In this document: positions 51,287 through 58,612 of the stretch, in pieces
Numbering within the stretch: position 1 is the stretch's first letter
Layout of the letters: each line of letters opens with the position of its first letter
Assembly (NCBI RefSeq): GCF_022865125.1
Contig: NZ_CP094828.1
Location: 248,001 to 312,000 of the forward strand
Source of the DNA: Acuticoccus sp. I52.16.1
GTDB lineage: Bacteria > Pseudomonadota > Alphaproteobacteria > Rhizobiales > Amorphaceae
Direction of reading: 5' to 3'
DNA: 64,000 bases
Notes under the pieces: model-generated
The model's input: the letters and a program-made list of their open reading frames with translations, nothing else
Told to the model about the DNA's origin: nothing
Databases searched by the model: none
Position numbers and translations under genes: made by a program

Positions 51287-53671
51287 TCAGACCATCGAGA
51301 GGCCCATCGCCTCGCCCTGCCGGGCGATGAAGGGGTGCCGCGCGGGCGGCCGGGCGCAGCGGCGGCGCAGCGCGGCGAACGCGGCCGGGTCGATCGCGAG
51401 CAGCGAGGGGGTGGCGGGGCGCGCCCGCCGCAACGCGGCGTAGCCGATCCCGGCGAGGCCCGTCATCAGCCCCGGCGCGCCCGGGCCGTCCGCCGTCGGC
51501 CACCGCGCCGGCGGGCCGTGCCGGTGCAGCGCAGCGGCGAAGGCCGAGCCCGCCAACTCGCCGTCGGCGGGGTGGTCGTCGAGGTCGGCGAGCGTCTCCA
51601 GCGCGCCGGCGAGCCCGTGGCACAGCGAGAGGTCGGGGAAGCCGGCGGCCGCCTGGCGGTCGACCTCGTGGCGCACGGCGTGGGCGGCGGCGGCACGGTC
51701 GGCGGCGTTGGCGTCCGGCGCGTCGAGCCGCGCCGCGAACAGCCGCGCGAGGCCGATCCCCGCCGCGCCGTTGCACCAGCCGCACAGCACCGGCTCGCCC
51801 CGCTCCGGCGCCGACGCGGCCTCCGGCGAGCGCAGGTCCGGCCACAAGCCGTGGCGCGCATCGAAGCGCTGGCGCTCGTAGGCGTGGGCCGCGCGGGCGG
51901 CGTGCAGGAAGCGGCTCACCCCGGTCGCCTCGTAGACCGCGAAGAGCGCGTGCGCCGCGCCGGCCGCACCGTGGCTGTAACCCAGCAGGTCGCCCACCGC
52001 GCCGTCGCCGCCGCAGCAACCGGCCCCCGGCGCGGACCACGACCAGATCGCCTTCCCGCCGTCCTCGCGCCGGCGCGCGGTCGCCAGCAGCGTGTCGGCA
52101 TCGGCGACCGCCTGGGCGAGGAGGTCTCGCGCACCGAGGAGCGCCGCCGCGGCGAGACGGCCGAGCGCGCGGCCCGCCGTCCCGGACAGCACGTCGAAGC
52201 CGGCCGGCGGCGCCGCATCGGCCAACTCCAGCAGACGGCGCGCGTCGGCGTCGAGCGCGTCGGTGGCGAGGTGGCGGCCGGCCGTCGCAAGCGCCAGCGC
52301 GATCCCGGTGAGGCCGGTGTAGAGGCCGCCGTCGCCCGGCGCCGGATGCCGCATGGCGACGGCGACGGCCTGACGCAGCGCGGCCAGCGCGGTGGCGGCG
52401 GCACGCCGGTCCCCGGTCGCCGCGGCATAAGTCGCGAGGAAGAGCCCGACGCCCGCCTGACCCGCGTAGAGGTTGGGCCCGAGGGTGCCGAACGCGCTTC
52501 CCTCGTCGCCGACGCCGAAGTCGCCCGAGCCGGGGCTGGTCGTCAGCCAGGTGCAGCGCTCGCCGTCGTGGATGGCGCTGGTCATCAGATGCTCGGCGAC
52601 GCGGCCCGCGGTGGCGAGCGGCGGCTCGGCCGATGTCTCGCGCGCGGCCGCGGCCCCGCCGCCGACGGTCACCGCGCTACGGCGCGCCAGCGGCATCGTC
52701 CAGGCGGCCAGCGGGTCGGGCGATCCGGCGAGGCGATGCGGCACGTCGAGGCAGATGCCCGCGCCCACGAACGCCAGCTCGGCCAGCGCCAGCCGCTCGC
52801 GCGGTTTTTTCACCTCTCCGTCGGCGGCCGCGAGGACGGCGTCGGCCAGCAGGCCGCAGCGATGCTCGCCGAAGCTCTGCCCGCCGCGCGGGCTCTCCGC
52901 GTAGGCGAGGCCCGGACCGATGCGGCGCGTCATCGCCGGCGTCCCGCTGGCGAGGTGCCGCTTGGCCAATTCGGCCACGGTGCGGATGGCGCGCGCGGCA
53001 CCGCCCAGCGCGGCGTGCGGCAGATAGAGGACGGCCCCGTCGCAGCGCCACGCGGGGTCCGGGCGCGTCAGCACCTTGAAGTGGAACGCGATTCCCGCCT
53101 CGTCCAGCCGGCGCGCCAGCTCGCCCGCCAGCCACGGCGCCCCGGCGGCCGTGACGTTCCAGTAGAGGCGCCACACGCGGCCGTGCGTGTCGAACGGGGC
53201 ACGGCCGATGACGAGATGGTGCCCCGGCGAGAACGCCGGGCGCGCGGTCGGCATCGCCACCGCGACGCCGCTCGCCGCATCCTCGCCGGGGCCCGCGCCG
53301 CGCACGCTCGCGCGATCGGCACACAGGGTGATGCCGCCGCGGGTGACGACGACGCCGCGCGCCGTCTCGCCCAGAGGCTGCCAACCGTTCTCCCAGCGCA
53401 TCGCGGGGACGGCGGCGCCGAGGGCGGCGGAGATCTCCCCGCCGGCTTCCTCGCGGTGCACGCGGCGGACCGCCCGTGGCCAGCCGCAGCAGTAGAAGTC
53501 GGTATAGAGGCGATGCGTGATCGCGGCCTCGAGGGCGGCGCGGCGCGCCTCGTGCGAAAGGCGCGCCGCGGTCGCCTCGTCGGCGATGCTGAAACTGCGG
53601 CCCAGCCACGTGAAGGCGACGTCCGATGTCACGGTGATGGCGGCCAGCGCCGCCTCGACAGGCTGCGTCAT
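51287..53671 (-). CDS. HopA1-LanC fusion: putative lanthipeptide lyase-cyclase
   Basis: 794 residues, starting at ATG 53671 with an AGGAG site. Residues 1-330 match the HopA1 family (YTDFYCCGWPRAV; RVWRLYWNVTAAGAPWLAGELARRL; FHFKVLTRPDPAWRCDGAVLYLP; IGPGLAYAESPRGGQSFGEHRC). HopA1-like proteins act as phospho-Ser/Thr lyases in class V lanthipeptide pathways. Residues 400-750 are a LanC-type alpha-toroid: YSHGAAG (His567), GWCNGAAGIG (Cys633) and LCHGLAG (Cys684, His685) give the zinc and catalytic ligands. The fusion would make dehydroamino acids, then close thioether rings. No kinase domain is present; the separate kinase is 15 bp upstream. Annotated as a synthetase because of the precursor and exporter in the same operon. 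Confidence 0.85.
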   Translation of the reverse strand: MTQPVEAALAAITVTSDVAFTWLGRSFSIADEATAARLSHEARRAALEAAITHRLYTDFYCCGWPRAVRRVHREEAGGEISAALGAAVPAMRWENGWQPLGETARGVVVTRGGITLCADRASVRGAGPGEDAASGVAVAMPTARPAFSPGHHLVIGRAPFDTHGRVWRLYWNVTAAGAPWLAGELARRLDEAGIAFHFKVLTRPDPAWRCDGAVLYLPHAALGGAARAIRTVAELAKRHLASGTPAMTRRIGPGLAYAESPRGGQSFGEHRCGLLADAVLAAADGEVKKPRERLALAELAFVGAGICLDVPHRLAGSPDPLAAWTMPLARRSAVTVGGGAAAARETSAEPPLATAGRVAEHLMTSAIHDGERCTWLTTSPGSGDFGVGDEGSAFGTLGPNLYAGQAGVGLFLATYAAATGDRRAAATALAALRQAVAVAMRHPAPGDGGLYTGLTGIALALATAGRHLATDALDADARRLLELADAAPPAGFDVLSGTAGRALGRLAAAALLGARDLLAQAVADADTLLATARRREDGGKAIWSWSAPGAGCCGGDGAVGDLLGYSHGAAGAAHALFAVYEATGVSRFLHAARAAHAYERQRFDARHGLWPDLRSPEAASAPERGEPVLCGWCNGAAGIGLARLFAARLDAPDANAADRAAAAHAVRHEVDRQAAAGFPDLSLCHGLAGALETLADLDDHPADGELAGSAFAAALHRHGPPARWPTADGPGAPGLMTGLAGIGYAALRRARPATPSLLAIDPAAFAALRRRCARPPARHPFIARQGEAMGLSMV

Positions 53672-53686
53672 CGTCGGCTCAGCTCC

Positions 53687-54793
53687 TCATTGCGAGAGCG
53701 GTTGATCGGAAAGGCCGAGGCGCGCCGCGGCGGCCTCTGCCGGGTGTTCCAGGAATTCGGCCCCCATCGCCGCCAAGGTGGCGACGCGGGCGTTGGGTTC
53801 GCCCAGCCCGGCGGCATGCTCGTAGGCTGCCTGGATGAGCCGCGCGCCCACGTACGGGGCGACCTGCGCCACCGCGAAACGCGGCGCGCCCGGGGCGGCG
53901 GCGTAGGCCCCCCAGGCGGATTGGATGGCCGCGCAGGCCGCCGGCTCGGTGAACCGCGCCCGATCGAGGTGCCGCTCGAACCCGGCCGGATCGCCGAGCG
54001 GCGCGGACATGAGCCACGTCTCGACGAAGGCGGCGAGCAGGCCGGCGAGGTCCCACCGCGGATCGCCTATCCCGAGGTACTCGAAGTCGATCAGCGTCAG
54101 TTCGTCGGCGACCACCAGCGCGTTGGCGAGGCGAATGTCGAAATGGACGACGCGGTCGGCACGCCAGTCGGCGGCCATGGCGACGAGCGGCGCGATGATC
54201 GTGCGGTGGGCCTGCAACGTGGCGATCAGCTCGATCTGCCCACGGCTGAGCCGGCAGAAGGTCTCCACCGAGGGCGCGTCGAGATGGAAGATCGTCGTGC
54301 CGCGATGGACAGGAAGACCGCGCGCCGGAGCGGCCTGCGGATCGAGCGCGTGCAGCGCCCCGAGGGCCGCGCCGAGGCGGGCCGGATACGCGCCCAGCGG
54401 CTCGCCGGCGAGCGCCACGTCGGCGAGCCGGCGCGCGCCCGGCACCAGCGTCAAGGCGAGGAGGTCGTCGGCCGTATCGTAGGCGATGGCGCGCGGGGTG
54501 GTGAGCGGCGCGCCGGCCGGTATCAGCGCGGCGAGCGTCTCGTAGGCGGCCGCCTCGTGGGCGACGGTGCCGAACCCCGTGTCACCGTCCCCCCGCTTGA
54601 GGAAGACCCCGCCGCCGTCCCGATCGACGAGGCGGGTGTTGGCGTGGCGGCTGGCGCTCGACTGCAATCGTGCCCCGCGCCGCACCAGTCCGGCGACGTC
54701 CACGACGCCCATCGCCATCGCCTGGCGCAGCAGCACCTCGGCGGGGCCGGTATCGGCCGAAGCGGGCATTGCGGGTTCGAAGAGGTCCGTCAT
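53687..54793 (-). CDS. APH-fold kinase of the lanthipeptide operon (LanK-like)
   Basis: 368 residues from ATG 54793; the open reading to 54898 overlaps a hairpin and lacks family sequence. Aminoglycoside-phosphotransferase fold: nucleotide Lys66 in GGVFLKRGDGD, Glu80, catalytic loop VVHFDIRLANALV (His217, Asp219, Asn224), and metal-binding LIDFEYLGIGDPRWDLAG (Asp236). In class V pathways such a kinase phosphorylates precursor Ser/Thr before elimination by a HopA1-type lyase. Here it stands directly between the precursor gene and the HopA1-LanC gene. A small-molecule kinase is the alternative, but the context argues against it. Confidence 0.85.
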   Translation of the reverse strand: MTDLFEPAMPASADTGPAEVLLRQAMAMGVVDVAGLVRRGARLQSSASRHANTRLVDRDGGGVFLKRGDGDTGFGTVAHEAAAYETLAALIPAGAPLTTPRAIAYDTADDLLALTLVPGARRLADVALAGEPLGAYPARLGAALGALHALDPQAAPARGLPVHRGTTIFHLDAPSVETFCRLSRGQIELIATLQAHRTIIAPLVAMAADWRADRVVHFDIRLANALVVADELTLIDFEYLGIGDPRWDLAGLLAAFVETWLMSAPLGDPAGFERHLDRARFTEPAACAAIQSAWGAYAAAPGAPRFAVAQVAPYVGARLIQAAYEHAAGLGEPNARVATLAAMGAEFLEHPAEAAAARLGLSDQPLSQ

Positions 54794-54857
54794 GCGATGT
54801 CGCCTCGTTGGCCCCGAGCGGCGCGCGGGTGGCGGCGCACGTCGAGGGCGGGGGAAA

Positions 54858-54895
54858 CGGGCCGCCCACCGGGACCGGGGTCCAGGGGCGACCCG
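54858..54895 (-). terminator. Attenuator-type hairpin between precursor and modification genes
   Basis: A nested dyad (CGGG, GCCC and GGACC paired with GGTCC, GGGC and CCCG) starting about 14 nt after the precursor stop. No T-run follows. RiPP operons often place a partial terminator or mRNA-stabilising hairpin here so that the precursor is made in excess of its enzymes. Confidence 0.5.
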
Positions 54896-54908
54896 CACGG
54901 AATGCGTG

Positions 54909-55109
54909 TCAGGTCGTGACTTTGCAGAACGGCGTCTTGGAGACGACCGAGCACTTGGGGTCGTCGCTGAGGTCGGCGGTCTTGATCGCGGACAGGCCGC
55001 CGCCGCCGACCGTCATCAGGCCTCTGCGATTGAGGCTGGAATACAGCGCCCCGCCGGTGACCTGGCGGGTCTCGTCGGCGGTCAGAGTCTTGATGATTTT
55101 TTTGGTCAT
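54909..55109 (-). CDS. Putative lanthipeptide precursor peptide
   Basis: 66 residues. Leader MTKKIIKTLTADETRQVTGG ends in a double-glycine motif (Gly19-Gly20), the cut site for the C39 peptidase encoded by the adjacent exporter; a second glycine run (35-38) is an alternative. The core from residue 21 contains Ser24, Ser25, Thr33, Ser40, Thr44, Ser48, Ser54, Ser57, Thr59, Thr65 and Thr66, plus only two Cys (53 and 62) within KCSVVSKTPFCKVTT. This supports up to two thioether rings or a disulfide. The gene has an AAGGAAC site and is divided by hairpins from both neighbours. It resembles no sequence I recognise. Confidence 0.8.
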   Translation of the reverse strand: MTKKIIKTLTADETRQVTGGALYSSLNRRGLMTVGGGGLSAIKTADLSDDPKCSVVSKTPFCKVTT

Positions 55110-55130
55110 AGTCTTTGTTCCTTGAAATAA

Positions 55131-55200
55131 ATCCGGTCCAATCCGGATGATCTGTATCTAAAATCCATGGCAACTTCTGGGTGTGACTCGCGTCACGCCC
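55131..55200 (-). promoter_or_regulatory. Two dyads in the leader of the precursor gene
   Basis: Within the 117-bp gap between the exporter stop and the precursor start are a perfect ATCCGG-N6-CCGGAT (55131-55148) and a nearly perfect 9-bp dyad around TCGC (55179-55200, one mismatch). The AT-rich stretch between them (55150-55170) could be a promoter. They could form a separate controlled promoter for the precursor, or an mRNA structure. Confidence 0.4.
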
Positions 55201-55226
55201 AGGCGTTCGGTAAGTATTTCTTGTGG

Positions 55227-57359
55227 TTACGCAGAGTTGATCGCGTGTGAGCCGGCCGCGATGGTGCCCGGACACGGCGCGGGCTCCGCCGCCGGCGTCA
55301 GCTCGCGCAGCACGCCGTCGCGCATTTCCAGGACCCGGTCGGCGCGGCGCACCAGCTCGGGCCGGTGCGCCACGACGATCCGCGTGATCGGCATCGCCGC
55401 GATGACGTCCGCGATCGCCCGCTCGGTCTCCTCGTCGAGGTTGGCGGTGCCCTCGTCGAGGAACAGCACCTGCGGGTCGCGGTAGAGCGCACGGGCGAGG
55501 ACGATGCGCTGACGCTGTCCGCCGGAGAGCGCGGCTCCCATGTCGCCCACCAGGCTGAGATACTGCATCGGCATGCGCATGATGCTGTCGTGCACCGCCG
55601 CGGCGTGGGCGCAGAGGAAGACGCGCTCCATGTCCACCTCCGGGTCGAAGAAGGCGATGTTGTCGGCGATCGTGCCGGACAGGAGCTGGTCGTCCTGCGC
55701 GACCACGCCGGTCTGCGCACGCCAACTGTCGAGTCCGAATTGCGCCAGCGGCTCGCCGTCGACCCGCACCTCCCCGCCGCTCGGCGTCAGCAGGCCGAGC
55801 ATCACCTTCAACAGGCTGGACTTGCCCCCGCCCGACGGGCCGACGATCGCCACCATCTCCCCCGGCGCGATCGCCAGATCGAGGTCTTCGAACAGGAGCG
55901 GCTCCTGCGGGGCGTAGCGGAAGGAGACCCCCTCCAGCGCGACCGCCCCCCGAAGACGCTTGGTCATCGCCTGGGTCGGCCGCGCGCCCGCCTCCCGCTC
56001 GGTGAGCACGATGTCGCCGAGGCGTTCCAGGTGCAGGCCCAGCATGCGGAATTCGATGTAGCGGTGCACCAGGGTGGCGGCGCGGTCGCCCATCTGCTGG
56101 CGGTAGCTCATGAAGGCGAACAGCATGCCGATGGAAAAGCCGCTCGCCTCGATCACCAGGCGCGACCCGAGATAGACGATCACCACCGTCTGCATGCCGA
56201 AGATCACCGTCTTGGCGAGGGCGACGAGGATGTCGAGCCGTCCGCGCCGGATCCCGGCGTTGACGACCTTGGCATAGGCGTTGCGCCACGCGGTCTCGCG
56301 CTGCGCCTCCCGGCCGAAGAGCTTGATCGTGCGCGAGGCGCGGATGCTCTCCATCATGTGCGACTGCTCGCCCGCCCGCGCGACGATCTCCTCTTCCTCA
56401 CGCGCCCGCAGGAACGGGAAAGCGATCAGCGAGACAGAGACGTAGAGCGCCAACGTCGCGATCACGACGAGGGCGAGCGTCGGCGCATAGGCCAGCATCG
56501 CCAACGTCAACAGCACCAGCATCGCCCCGTCGAGGAAGGCCGCGACCACGGCTTCGGTCAACGCCCGCTCGATGGGCTGCGTCGAGCCCATGCGCGAGAC
56601 GATGTCGCCGACGTGCCGCTTCTCGAAGAAGTCGGCCGGCAGGCGCATCAGGTGGCGGAAGATGTTGCCGACCATCTGAAAGGTCAGCGACTGGCCGAGC
56701 GAGAGGATCACCCACGCCCGCAGCGCCTCGGTCGCGGCGTTGACGACGTGCAGCGCCGCGAACCCCACCGCCAGCACCACGAGGAACTGGTGGTCGAGCC
56801 GGGTGACCGCCTCGTCGACCGCCAGCTGCAGGTAGAAGGGGAAGAGCAGCGCCACCAGCTGCAACACCAGCGACAGGACGACGAGCTGCACCGCCGCGCG
56901 GCGCCATCCGGCGATCCGGCCCCAGAGATCGGTGAGCCGCATGCGCCCGCCCATCGCCGGCGGGTCGAACGCCGCGGCCGGCTCCAACTCCAGCGCGACG
57001 CCGGTGAAGCGGGCGTCCATCTCCGCCGCCGACAGGCTTCGCTCGCCGCGGGCGGGGTCGAGGATGACGAAGGCGCGCCGGCGCACCCGCGTCAGCACCA
57101 CGAAATGATCGAGGTCGACGTGCAGGATCGCGGGCAGCTTCAGGCGGCCCAGCTCCTCCAGCTCCAGCCGCACCGCGCGCGTCGCCAGGCACAGCTTGTC
57201 GGCGACCTGCATCATGTCGCGCAGGCTCGCACCGTTCAGCGACAGGCCGAACCGCACGCGCAGGCCGTTGAGGTCGACCGCGGCGCCGTGCGCCCGCGCG
57301 ACCATCGCCAGGCACGCGAGACCGCATTCGGCGGCCTCGGCTTGGTGGATCATCTTCAT
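55227..57359 (-). CDS. Peptidase-containing ABC exporter (C39-TM-NBD)
   Basis: 710 residues from ATG 57359, overlapping the HlyD stop as ATGA. The N-terminal C39 cysteine-peptidase domain has Cys12 (QAEAAECGLAC), His85 (DLDHFVVLTRV) and Asp101 (ILDPARGE), all intact, so it should remove the GG leader. Six transmembrane helices (about 150-430) with the EKRHVGDIVSRMGS coupling segment. NBD: Walker A VGPSGGGKSS, signature LSGGQRQR, Walker B VLFLDEGTANLD, H-loop VVAHRPE. Cleaves and exports the adjacent peptide through the inner membrane together with the HlyD-type adaptor. Confidence 0.93.
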   Translation of the reverse strand: MKMIHQAEAAECGLACLAMVARAHGAAVDLNGLRVRFGLSLNGASLRDMMQVADKLCLATRAVRLELEELGRLKLPAILHVDLDHFVVLTRVRRRAFVILDPARGERSLSAAEMDARFTGVALELEPAAAFDPPAMGGRMRLTDLWGRIAGWRRAAVQLVVLSLVLQLVALLFPFYLQLAVDEAVTRLDHQFLVVLAVGFAALHVVNAATEALRAWVILSLGQSLTFQMVGNIFRHLMRLPADFFEKRHVGDIVSRMGSTQPIERALTEAVVAAFLDGAMLVLLTLAMLAYAPTLALVVIATLALYVSVSLIAFPFLRAREEEEIVARAGEQSHMMESIRASRTIKLFGREAQRETAWRNAYAKVVNAGIRRGRLDILVALAKTVIFGMQTVVIVYLGSRLVIEASGFSIGMLFAFMSYRQQMGDRAATLVHRYIEFRMLGLHLERLGDIVLTEREAGARPTQAMTKRLRGAVALEGVSFRYAPQEPLLFEDLDLAIAPGEMVAIVGPSGGGKSSLLKVMLGLLTPSGGEVRVDGEPLAQFGLDSWRAQTGVVAQDDQLLSGTIADNIAFFDPEVDMERVFLCAHAAAVHDSIMRMPMQYLSLVGDMGAALSGGQRQRIVLARALYRDPQVLFLDEGTANLDEETERAIADVIAAMPITRIVVAHRPELVRRADRVLEMRDGVLRELTPAAEPAPCPGTIAAGSHAINSA

Positions 57360-58612
57360 CGCTGCACCGCCGCGAGTATGGGTCGGAAGACCACCTCCCA
57401 CAGCCGGCGCTCCTCGAGCACGATATCGGCCCGGAGCGTCATGCCGGCCTGGAGGGGGATGTCGGCGCCGCCGGCTGCCACACGATCGGCGTGGAGGGTG
57501 GCGACGACGCGGAAGAAGGGCTCGCCGAGGCTGGGCGGGCCGTCGGGCAAGTCGCGCGGGGTGAGGATGGTGCGCGAGACGATCTTCACCGTCGCCTCGC
57601 CGACCCCGAACGTCTGATAGGGGAAGGCATCGTAGCGCAGGCGGACCCGCTGGCCGGGCGCCAGGAATCCCGCTGCGCGGGACGGGACGAAGAGTTCGGC
57701 CTCCAGCGTTCCCCCGTCCGGCAGGATCGAGACCACCATCTCCTGCGCCTCGACCGATTGGCCCGGCCGCGCCATCACCGCCGCGACGCGCCCCGCCACC
57801 GGCGCACGCAGGCCGACCGTGCCGCGCCGCGCCGCCTCGGTCGCCCGCTGGTCCAGCGCGGCGAGGCGCTCGCGCAGCTGCGCCCGCTCGATGGCGGCCT
57901 TGGTCGGCAGCGCCGCGAGGCGGGCGTCCAGCTCGGCGGTGCGGTGGGCGGCGGCGGAGACCTGCGCGGCCAGCCGCTCCGCCTCGGCGCGCTTGGCGAG
58001 GAGGTTCTCCTCGCGCCGCTGCCGCTCGATCCGGGTGACGGTGCCCCGCTCGACGAGACCCTCGATCTGGTCCACCAGCGCCTCGGCCAGCGCCGTGCGC
58101 TCGACGTGGACGGCAAGCTCGCGCTCCAGGTGCTCGCGCTCTGCGAGGAGCCCGCGGCGCTCGGCGTCCATCCGCCGCCGCTCGCCGGCGAAGTCGTCCG
58201 CGACCAGCGCCAGACGTCGCTCCACCTCGCCGCGCTCGCTGGCGAGCTGGCGCGCCATCCGTTGCGACGCATCGCCCAGCGCCGGGAGCGCCACGTCGTG
58301 CGAGACGGTGAGCAGCGAGGCGCCCTTGGCGACCCGGTCCCCCTCCCCGACGGCCACCGCGGCCACCGTCCCCGCCGCCCCGACCGTGACGCGCACGATC
58401 CCGGTGTCTGGCGTCAGCCAGCCGACGACGGGCTCGCTGCGCGCATAGGAGCCGAAGACGAGGACGGCGGCGACACCGGCCGCGACGAGGAGGATCAGCC
58501 CCGTCAGCGCCCATGCCGGCAGCGGCACGTCGAGCCGCACATCGCCGTGCAGACGCTGGCGTTTGCGCTCGAGCGCGGCGTCGCGGAACAGGGTCGGCGG
58601 TGCGTGCTGCAT
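57356..58612 (-). CDS. HlyD-family periplasmic adaptor of the peptide exporter
   Basis: 418 residues. One transmembrane helix (about 33-56), a lipoyl-like half (VAVGEGDRVAKGASLLTVSHD), a long Arg/Glu/Ala coiled coil (about 115-265), the second lipoyl half (LRAPVAGRVAAVMARPGQSVEAQEMVVSILP), then the barrel domain. RND- and type I-type adaptors of this kind bridge to an outer-membrane channel. The start overlaps a small ORF stop (TGATG) with GGAGGG upstream. First gene of the RiPP operon; 4-bp overlap with the exporter. Confidence 0.9.
   Translation of the reverse strand: MQHAPPTLFRDAALERKRQRLHGDVRLDVPLPAWALTGLILLVAAGVAAVLVFGSYARSEPVVGWLTPDTGIVRVTVGAAGTVAAVAVGEGDRVAKGASLLTVSHDVALPALGDASQRMARQLASERGEVERRLALVADDFAGERRRMDAERRGLLAEREHLERELAVHVERTALAEALVDQIEGLVERGTVTRIERQRREENLLAKRAEAERLAAQVSAAAHRTAELDARLAALPTKAAIERAQLRERLAALDQRATEAARRGTVGLRAPVAGRVAAVMARPGQSVEAQEMVVSILPDGGTLEAELFVPSRAAGFLAPGQRVRLRYDAFPYQTFGVGEATVKIVSRTILTPRDLPDGPPSLGEPFFRVVATLHADRVAAGGADIPLQAGMTLRADIVLEERRLWEVVFRPILAAVQR

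What the first reader, a model, noticed from the sequence alone, without database searches (positions are those of the whole stretch)
51287..58612. Lanthipeptide-like operon with separate kinase and HopA1-LanC fusion in an alphaproteobacterium
Seen: five co-directional genes: HlyD adaptor, C39-ABC exporter, 66-residue GG-leader peptide with Cys/Ser/Thr core, APH-fold kinase with intact catalytic residues, and a fusion of a HopA1-like domain to a LanC cyclase with all zinc ligands. Known: class V lanthipeptides use a kinase plus a HopA1-type lyase without LanC; class III/IV use kinase-lyase-LanC fusions; class VI uses HopA1-like lyase, kinase and cyclase in one protein. Inferred: here the kinase is separate while lyase and cyclase are fused, an intermediate arrangement, in a Gram-negative cluster coupled to a peptidase exporter. 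I cannot tell whether this exact layout has been described.
Basis: partly seen in the sequence, partly recalled or inferred. Interest (0 to 1): 0.92.

Follow-up and report, generated by a model that had tools for sequence, protein, structure and literature searches.

The report
Lanthipeptide operon with fused lyase-cyclase
This is a gene set from an alphaproteobacterium that very probably makes, cross-links and exports a small lanthionine-bridged peptide, using a separate kinase and a lyase joined to a cyclase; it looks like a rearranged Gram-negative relative of the known class V lanthipeptide machinery.

Summary
On the minus strand, 58612-51287, lie a HlyD adaptor, a C39-ABC exporter, a 66-residue GG-leader peptide, an APH-type kinase and a HopA1-LanC fusion. 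Pfam finds HopA1 (100.5 bits, cut-off 22.7) and LANC_like (140.4, cut-off 23.2) in one 794-residue protein. The nearest solved structure of both kinase and HopA1 half is the class V lexapeptide dehydratase LxmKY. Lyase residues tested in CaoY and the cyclase zinc ligands are present. Best filing: a new variant of class V, subgroup Vb, with LanY fused to LanC. An 'intermediate' is not shown; class Vb already uses LanC. The layout is not unique: kinase plus HopA1-LanC fusion occurs in 8 of 27 loci classified, beside three-gene and kinase-HopA1 forms. Unexpectedly, most three-gene and kinase-HopA1 relatives sit beside repetitive Ser/Thr-rich proteins of 3 to 27 units. Two of 21 cyclases have lost their zinc ligands, one beside a precursor without cysteine in its likely coding part. 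The chemistry is inferred, not shown.

The parts
57356..58612 (-). HlyD-type periplasmic adaptor (418 aa)
   Evidence: Pfam HlyD_3 E 6.7e-17; TIGR01843 type_I_hlyD 114 bits, under its cut-off 208.65
55227..57359 (-). Peptidase-containing ABC exporter (710 aa), C39 + ABC_membrane + ABC_tran
   Evidence: Pfam C39 E 5.7e-34, ABC_membrane E 1.6e-41, ABC_tran E 8.1e-30; best NCBIfam NHLM_micro_ABC1 479 bits, under cut-off 853
56976..57356 (-). C39 double-glycine peptidase domain of the exporter
   Evidence: Pfam match (converted from the 712-residue query to the 710-aa numbering); Cys, His and Asp motifs present (roles recalled)
54909..55109 (-). Precursor peptide (66 aa), predicted GG leader and core
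   Evidence: Only GG-leader-pattern ORF in the window; between exporter and kinase, same strand; 6 Ser, 5 Thr, 2 Cys in the core
55050..55109 (-). Predicted leader MTKKIIKTLTADETRQVTGG
   Evidence: Sequence; E at -8, V at -4, GG at -2/-1 relative to the predicted cut (consensus recalled); NCBIfam TIGR01847 weak, 12.6 bits under cut-off 15.7
54912..55049 (-). Predicted core ALYSSLNRRGLMTVGGGGLSAIKTADLSDDPKCSVVSKTPFCKVTT (46 aa)
   Evidence: Sequence; monoisotopic mass 4743.44 unmodified; 11 Ser/Thr and 2 Cys, so at most 11 dehydrations and 2 thioethers
53687..54793 (-). APH-fold LanK-like kinase (368 aa from ATG; GTG at 54898 is an alternative start)
   Evidence: Pfam APH E 2.3e-15; NF038156 LxmK 88.3 bits, E 5.1e-25, under cut-off 315; nearest PDB entry 9dk1_A (LxmK) by profile E 2.4e-25 and by fold
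51287..53671 (-). LanY-LanC fusion (794 aa): HopA1-type phospho-Ser/Thr lyase joined to a zinc LanC cyclase
   Evidence: Both Pfam domains in one uninterrupted frame; same fusion in 7 other loci
52733..53245 (-). HopA1 Pfam region (residues 143-313) with R168, K199, R209, Y216
   Evidence: residues match CaoY R187, K219, R229, Y236 (PMC9486802) by spacing, and are shared with a Streptomyces LanY beside an annotated lxmK
51410..52483 (-). LANC_like Pfam region (residues 397-754) with His567 and zinc ligands C633, C684, H685
   Evidence: (ligand roles recalled)

Best explanation
A lanthipeptide pathway of class V (Vb) type. The separate APH-fold kinase (LanK) phosphorylates Ser/Thr in the core of the 66-residue precursor. 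The HopA1 half of the fusion (LanY) eliminates the phosphates to give Dha/Dhb. The zinc LanC half adds one or both core cysteines (core positions 33 and 42) to dehydroamino acids, giving lanthionine or methyllanthionine rings. The C39 domain of the ABC exporter cuts after GG and exports the product with HlyD and a TolC-like channel encoded elsewhere (not searched for). Fusing lyase to cyclase would hand the reactive intermediate directly to the ring-closing site. Shown here: gene layout, domain and residue conservation, predicted folds, recurrence in other phyla. Inferred: kinase-fusion complex formation, substrate identity, chemistry, ring number, export and any bioactivity.
For: Five adjacent co-directional genes. 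Domain hits far above cut-offs. Best solved match of both kinase and lyase is the LxmKY complex: kinase profile E 2.4e-25 against 2.5e-7 for the next entry; lyase profile E 7.5e-26, next HopA1 at 3.2e-5; Foldseek ranks LxmKY chains first for both models. Lyase residues equivalent to CaoY R187, K219, R229 and Y236 are conserved. Zinc ligands intact. The cyclase half resembles CuvL, LicM2, LanCL1/2, MadC and NisC. Kinase, HopA1 and LanC are found together in 20 of 27 loci classified, plus one with the kinase and one with LanC beyond a contig end. The GG leader suits the C39 exporter, and only one such ORF exists in the 64 kb.
Against: No product data. The kinase scores 88 bits against the LxmK equivalog cut-off of 315. 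The GG leader is unlike class V actinobacterial leaders (recalled) and misses the bacteriocin-signal cut-off. CaoY His57, whose change to Asn gives partial dehydration, seems not to be kept: at the column where the Streptomyces LanY has His, the window has Tyr60 (CaoY itself was not aligned). The congener G005 keeps kinase and fusion between the same flanks, but in its 19-kb stretch no C39 or HlyD match and no GG-leader peptide was recognised, and its zinc ligands are lost; so the enzymes persist in another setting. Models are of moderate confidence (fusion mean pLDDT 73.2, pTM 0.55; kinase 77.3, pTM 0.79). No immunity or regulatory gene was recognised inside the operon.
Confidence: 0.8

Rival explanations
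1. The operon makes a dehydrated RiPP but the LanC half does not form (Me)Lan rings as such; it acts as scaffold or substrate holder, and rings, if any, form spontaneously or the product is linear with Dha/Dhb.
For: Two of 21 cyclase domains in the family have lost zinc ligands while the lyase residues stay; one (G808) sits beside a repeat-protein ORF with no Cys after its likely start. In class Va no LanC is known, and the rosin A1 Lan ring forms without an enzyme.
Against: In the window all zinc ligands and the catalytic His are present, and the core has two Cys; 19 of 21 cyclase domains keep the ligands.
Confidence: 0.1
2. Related to classes III/IV: a split descendant of a LanKC/LanL synthetase, that is, a true intermediate.
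For: The fold search also lists CuvL (class IV) and ThurKC (class III); NF038150 LanL gives 120 bits over residues 318-754, the cyclase part. The lyase fold of ThurKC is described as reminiscent of HopA1 (passage of PMC10604976), and PMC9486802 sees catalytic similarity of LanY with the LanKC/LanL lyase.
Against: The kinase is PF01636 APH type with LxmK as nearest solved relative, not PF00069. The lyase matches HopA1/LanY at sequence level, and HopA1-like RiPP lyases were reported to show no significant sequence similarity to LanKC/LanL. LanL and LanKC cut-offs are not met. No rooted tree with LanL/LanKC was made here.
Confidence: 0.06
3. The kinase-fusion pair is a stand-alone Ser/Thr-modifying enzyme acting on another protein; the GG peptide is an unmodified bacteriocin-like passenger of the exporter.
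For: G005 keeps kinase and fusion without a recognised peptide or C39 exporter nearby. Several relatives sit beside long repeat proteins instead of short peptides.
Against: In the window the peptide lies directly between exporter and kinase on the same strand and its core carries 2 Cys and 11 Ser/Thr, which suits the enzymes.
Confidence: 0.06

Closest known systems
Class Vb lanthipeptide synthesis (LanK + LanY + LanC; SmoC system of Pei et al. 2022, seen only through passages of PMC12291118 and PMC12328550)
   Same: Same three activities: APH kinase, HopA1 lyase, LanC
   Different: Class V is worded there as using stand-alone LanK and LanY; here LanY and LanC are one protein, in an alphaproteobacterium, with a GG leader and C39/HlyD export
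Lexapeptide dehydratase LxmKY (PDB 9dk1-9dk3), class Va
   Same: Nearest solved relative of both kinase and lyase by sequence and fold
   Different: Class Va BGCs have no LanC. The AviMeCys-forming flavoprotein and LanX of class Va were not among the five operon genes here (not searched genome-wide)
Cacaoidin CaoK/CaoY
   Same: Lyase residues R187, K219, R229, Y236 correspond by spacing to R168, K199, R209, Y216 here
   Different: Separate LanY; His57 seems not kept here
Class III/IV synthetases (LanKC, LanL; CuvL, ThurKC)
   Same: Kinase, phospho-lyase and cyclase chemistry; LanC-fold cyclase on the same chain as the lyase
   Different: One polypeptide with a PF00069-type kinase; lyase related to SpvC/OspF
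Class II LanM of Gram-negative clusters with C39/HlyD exporters (recalled)
   Same: GG leader and C39 exporter (recalled); LanC part gives 199 bits to the LanM model
   Different: No LanM dehydratase domain; cut-off 304 not met
Kinase plus HopA1-LanC fusion loci in Rhizobium johnstonii, R. beringeri, Deinococcus sp. QL22, Pseudonocardia sp. EC080625-04, Luteitalea MAG, Acidobacteria MAG
   Same: Same fusion and separate kinase
   Different: Different precursor candidates; no C39 match in the fetched stretches (flanks differ in length)

Membership tests
Class V lanthipeptide synthetases (LanK/LanY) | APH-family kinase PF01636 as LanK | tested here: met
   57.5 bits, cut-off 23.2; nearest solved relative LxmK
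Class V lanthipeptide synthetases (LanK/LanY) | HopA1-family lyase PF17914 as LanY with the CaoY residues | tested here: met
   100.5 bits; R168, K199, R209, Y216; His57 seems not kept
Class V lanthipeptide synthetases (LanK/LanY) | Stand-alone LanK and LanY proteins, as worded in PMC12291118 | tested here: not met
   Kinase stands alone; LanY is fused to LanC. So a variant, not a plain member
LxmK equivalog NF038156 | Score over the curated cut-off 315 | tested here: not met
   88.3 bits, E 5.1e-25
Class Vb | LanC cyclase in the same cluster | tested here: met
   LANC_like 140.4 bits; C633, C684, H685
Class V / Vb | Product carries (Me)Lan made through phosphorylation and elimination | not testable with these tools
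   Needs mass spectrometry
Class III / IV (LanKC, LanL) | Lyase, kinase and cyclase in one polypeptide; model cut-offs | tested here: not met
   Kinase separate; LanL 120 of 650 bits, LanKC 59 of 575
Class II (LanM) | LanM model TIGR03897 cut-off | tested here: not met
   199 of 304 bits, residues 343-751 only
Class I | LanB dehydratase in the genome | tested here: inconclusive
   PF04738 gave 0 of 1, but rang in none of the 14 control genomes either
Class VI (streptococcal) | One protein with a kinase and truncated lyase and cyclase domains | tested here: not met
   Separate kinase; HopA1 match over profile 2-170 of 170 and LANC_like over 3-342 of 350; definition from a review passage

The most novel reading that the evidence does not exclude
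Outside the actinobacterial class V pathways there is a broad kinase-HopA1-LanC ('LanKYC') family, seen here in Pseudomonadota, Acidobacteriota, Bacteroidota, Deinococcota and Actinomycetota, whose three modules have been joined in different ways (K with Y-C; K-Y with C; three genes). Part of it does not make short leader-core peptides but dehydrates and cross-links long, repetitive, apparently leaderless Ser/Thr-rich and often Cys-rich proteins with 3 to 27 repeat units. Where the substrate has lost cysteine, the cyclase can lose its zinc and the product may be a poly-dehydrated repeat protein. The window is the short-peptide, C39-exported branch of this family.
Probability: 0.45. Interest if true: 0.82.

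Novelty: new variant of a known kind. Interest (0 to 1): 0.62.

Why it matters
A 2025 review says class V lanthipeptides have been found only in actinobacteria (PMC12328550, passage), though distant homologues of the gene pair had been noted in Proteobacteria, Cyanobacteria and Planctomycetes and orthologues in Firmicutes (PMC7794033, section 9). A compact Gram-negative version with a lyase-cyclase fusion, a likely cognate leader peptidase and a likely single substrate could be rebuilt in E. coli, and it would test directly whether fusion channels the dehydrated intermediate. The relatives beside repeat proteins, and those with zinc-less cyclases, would allow a test of whether substrate cysteine and cyclase zinc are lost together.

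Tried and rejected
Rejected: chance reading (domain scores; recurrence of the fusion in 7 other loci). Rejected: assembly artefact joining two genes (one open frame here and in other genomes). Rejected: unique layout. Considered but not adopted: evolutionary intermediate between classes.

Single fusion origin: in the LanC tree the eight fusions fall on one side of a weak branch (42/95); in the lyase tree one clade is not in the best tree but is not rejected (p-AU 0.337). So a single fusion event is possible but not shown; long branches (Pseudonocardia, Acidobacteria, Actinomycetota, and the Streptomyces or G808 row) limit both trees.

Led nowhere: single-protein scans of genome contigs and viral contigs found no confirmed relatives. 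The terminator scan gave 2 sites against 2.0 in shuffles; the promoter scan gave one site, on the other strand. Flank comparison: of 8 congeners including this genome, only G005 keeps both flanks next to the locus; in the six others the homologues lay on different contigs, far apart, or only weakly matching (some assemblies are fragmented). LanB search uninformative. Not used in the trees: L051 (cut by contig end), L017/G184 and L052/G817 (weak HopA1 only). Plasmid records not fetched: H5 (second Pseudonocardia), four further Aliiroseovarius, Nostoc HK-01 (H12), and the LanC-only matches H14-H19.
Full report
WHAT IS THERE. The five minus-strand genes are real and at the stated place. HlyD and the exporter overlap by four bases; the peptide follows after 117 bases of lower GC (0.47); the kinase ATG lies 115 bases further, or 10 if the GTG at 54898 is used; the fusion starts 15 bases after the kinase. 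The domain calls named here pass Pfam cut-offs. The fusion is a single open frame holding HopA1 (143-313) and LANC_like (397-754). In the whole genome there is one LANC_like and one HopA1 match, both here. The host is an alphaproteobacterium by 16S but is not named by the tools.

THE DEHYDRATASE IS CLASS V TYPE. The kinase matches the class V LxmK model at E 5.1e-25, though well under its equivalog cut-off (88 of 315 bits). A profile of the kinase and five relatives hits 9dk1_A at E 2.4e-25, with the next PDB sequence at 2.5e-7. A profile of seven lyase regions hits 9dk1_B at E 7.5e-26. The fold search names these entries as the lexapeptide dehydratase complex LxmKY and ranks them first for both predicted models. 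In cacaoidin biosynthesis, CaoY K219A lost lyase activity, R187A nearly lost it and R229Q was inefficient (PMC9486802, section 6 read). The window has R168, K199, R209 and Y216 at matching spacing. In the 24-row lyase alignment R168 is kept in 23, K199 in 24, R209 in 24 and Y216 in 22 rows, including a Streptomyces LanY next to an annotated lxmK. Against this, CaoY His57 (partial effect) seems to have no counterpart: the Streptomyces row has His where the window has Tyr60 (CaoY itself not aligned).

THE CYCLASE. The LanC half has His567 and zinc ligands C633, C684, H685. Its nearest solved folds are CuvL, LicM2, GCR2, LanCL proteins, MadC and NisC. The models are of moderate confidence, so they support fold assignment only.

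THE SUBSTRATE AND EXPORT. The 66-residue peptide has a GG leader and a 46-residue core with 6 Ser, 5 Thr and 2 Cys. It is the only ORF of its size class with the GG-leader pattern in the window. The exporter has the C39 peptidase domain. A C39 match was found in 2 of 25 loci tested: the window and L024, a cyanobacterium (flanks differ in length). A further cyanobacterial locus, L054, is annotated with a peptidase-domain ABC transporter that runs off the stretch.

HOW WIDESPREAD. I classified 27 loci including the window (with annotation). Kinase plus HopA1-LanC fusion: 8 (window, congener G005, Rhizobium johnstonii, R. beringeri, Deinococcus QL22, Pseudonocardia EC080625-04, Luteitalea MAG, an Acidobacteria MAG). 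Three separate genes: 6 (Aliiroseovarius, G277, G175, Hymenobacter, an Actinomycetota MAG, G808), and one (Undibacterium) with the kinase off the contig. Kinase and HopA1 without LanC seen: 3 (a Streptomyces class V locus, two cyanobacteria). Weak HopA1 only: 2. Thus the layout in the window is one of several arrangements of the same three modules. The sample is not random: it came from Pfam searches in genome samples, tblastn on plasmids and one pattern scan.

TREES. The window and G005 group strongly in both trees (98/97 lyase, 99/99 cyclase). Whether all fusions share one origin is unresolved.

A CONGENER THAT HAS LOST PARTS. G005 carries kinase and fusion between the same flanking genes, with an unrelated transporter-like gene also present. 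In its 19-kb stretch there is no C39 or HlyD match and I recognised no GG peptide. Its cyclase reads WASG and ASG where the window reads WCNG and CHG. Lyase and kinase residues stay. Either the enzymes now act elsewhere or they are decaying; I cannot tell.

THE UNEXPECTED PART. Upstream of kinase genes in several relatives lie repeat proteins on the same strand: G277, 13 units such as CKDVMWTAGCTF; G175, 14 units such as GCPSTSTC (with an N-masked stretch); Hymenobacter, a 458-residue open frame with 32 Cys; the G602 genus, 14 to 27 [QG]TIS units in the five loci where the frame is not cut by a contig end, with NPWVTQTTYCPPA at the end in 7 of 7; Aliiroseovarius, three units in an annotated 80-residue protein. 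Frames were read stop to stop, so starts are not fixed and counts refer to those frames. For the Undibacterium and Actinomycetota three-gene loci no such protein was identified. G808 has a Thr/Pro repeat protein whose 4 Cys all lie before its likely start, and its cyclase has lost the zinc ligands (WVHG, ASG). That is the single informative case for linked loss. That these repeat proteins are substrates is inferred from position and conservation only.

WHAT IT MOST LIKELY IS. A class V (Vb-like) lanthipeptide pathway in a Gram-negative host, with LanY and LanC fused and C39/HlyD export. It fails the literal 'stand-alone LanY' criterion and the LxmK equivalog cut-off, so I file it as a new variant rather than a plain member. 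It works like class Vb.

LITERATURE SEEN. Sections read: PMC9486802 section 6, PMC7794033 section 9. Passages only: PMC12291118, PMC10604976, PMC12328550, PMC10676316, PMC9415263, PMC10880069. Not held: He et al. 2023 (class VI) and Pei et al. 2022 (SmoC). Ten library searches, judged from their listings and these passages, gave no description of a LanY-LanC fusion or of repeat-protein substrates for such enzymes; PF17914 and PF05147 occur together in no held paper. PMC12291118 mentions LanD-LanX fusions, so fusion of class V parts has a precedent.

CHANGE AFTER CHECKING. Confidence in the main explanation was lowered from 0.82 to 0.80 because the His57 difference had been left out.

Noticed in passing
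L014 7370-8050; L046 7853-8533 (-); L047 3306-4160; L048 2730-3320; L051 3988-4740; L049, L050 at contig ends: Repeat proteins of up to 27 [QG]TIS units with a shared C-terminus NPWVTQTTYCPPA (7 of 7) beside a kinase-HopA1 fusion, in one unnamed genus.
   Followed up: partly
L015 5588-6943; L016 11701-13104 (-); L021 4841-6217; L012 7230-7472: Multi-unit Cys/Ser/Thr-rich proteins upstream of separate kinase, HopA1 and LanC genes.
   Followed up: partly
L045 3131-8618: Thr/Pro repeat protein without Cys after its likely start, beside kinase, HopA1 and a LanC that has lost its zinc ligands.
   Followed up: partly
L013 8221-12040: Congener G005 keeps kinase and fusion in the same place without a recognised GG peptide, C39 exporter or HlyD, with zinc ligands replaced (WASG, ASG).
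   Followed up: partly
L009 13692-16886: A lantibiotic dehydratase (LanB-like) gene lies about 2.4 kb beyond the HopA1-LanC fusion on the Rhizobium plasmid, with a cupin-like and a hypothetical gene between.
   Followed up: no
L054 3942-12708: Cyanobacterial plasmid with kinase and HopA1 but no LanC annotated in the stretch, followed by aldo/keto reductase, two peptidylprolyl isomerases, HlyD and a peptidase-domain ABC transporter.
   Followed up: no
L012 12177-19868: Type II secretion-like pseudopilin and GspE/F genes near the Aliiroseovarius kinase/HopA1/LanC genes.
   Followed up: no
window 55148-55131 (-): A stem-loop followed by T-rich sequence lies just before the peptide gene; terminator-like hits are no more frequent than in shuffles.
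   Followed up: no
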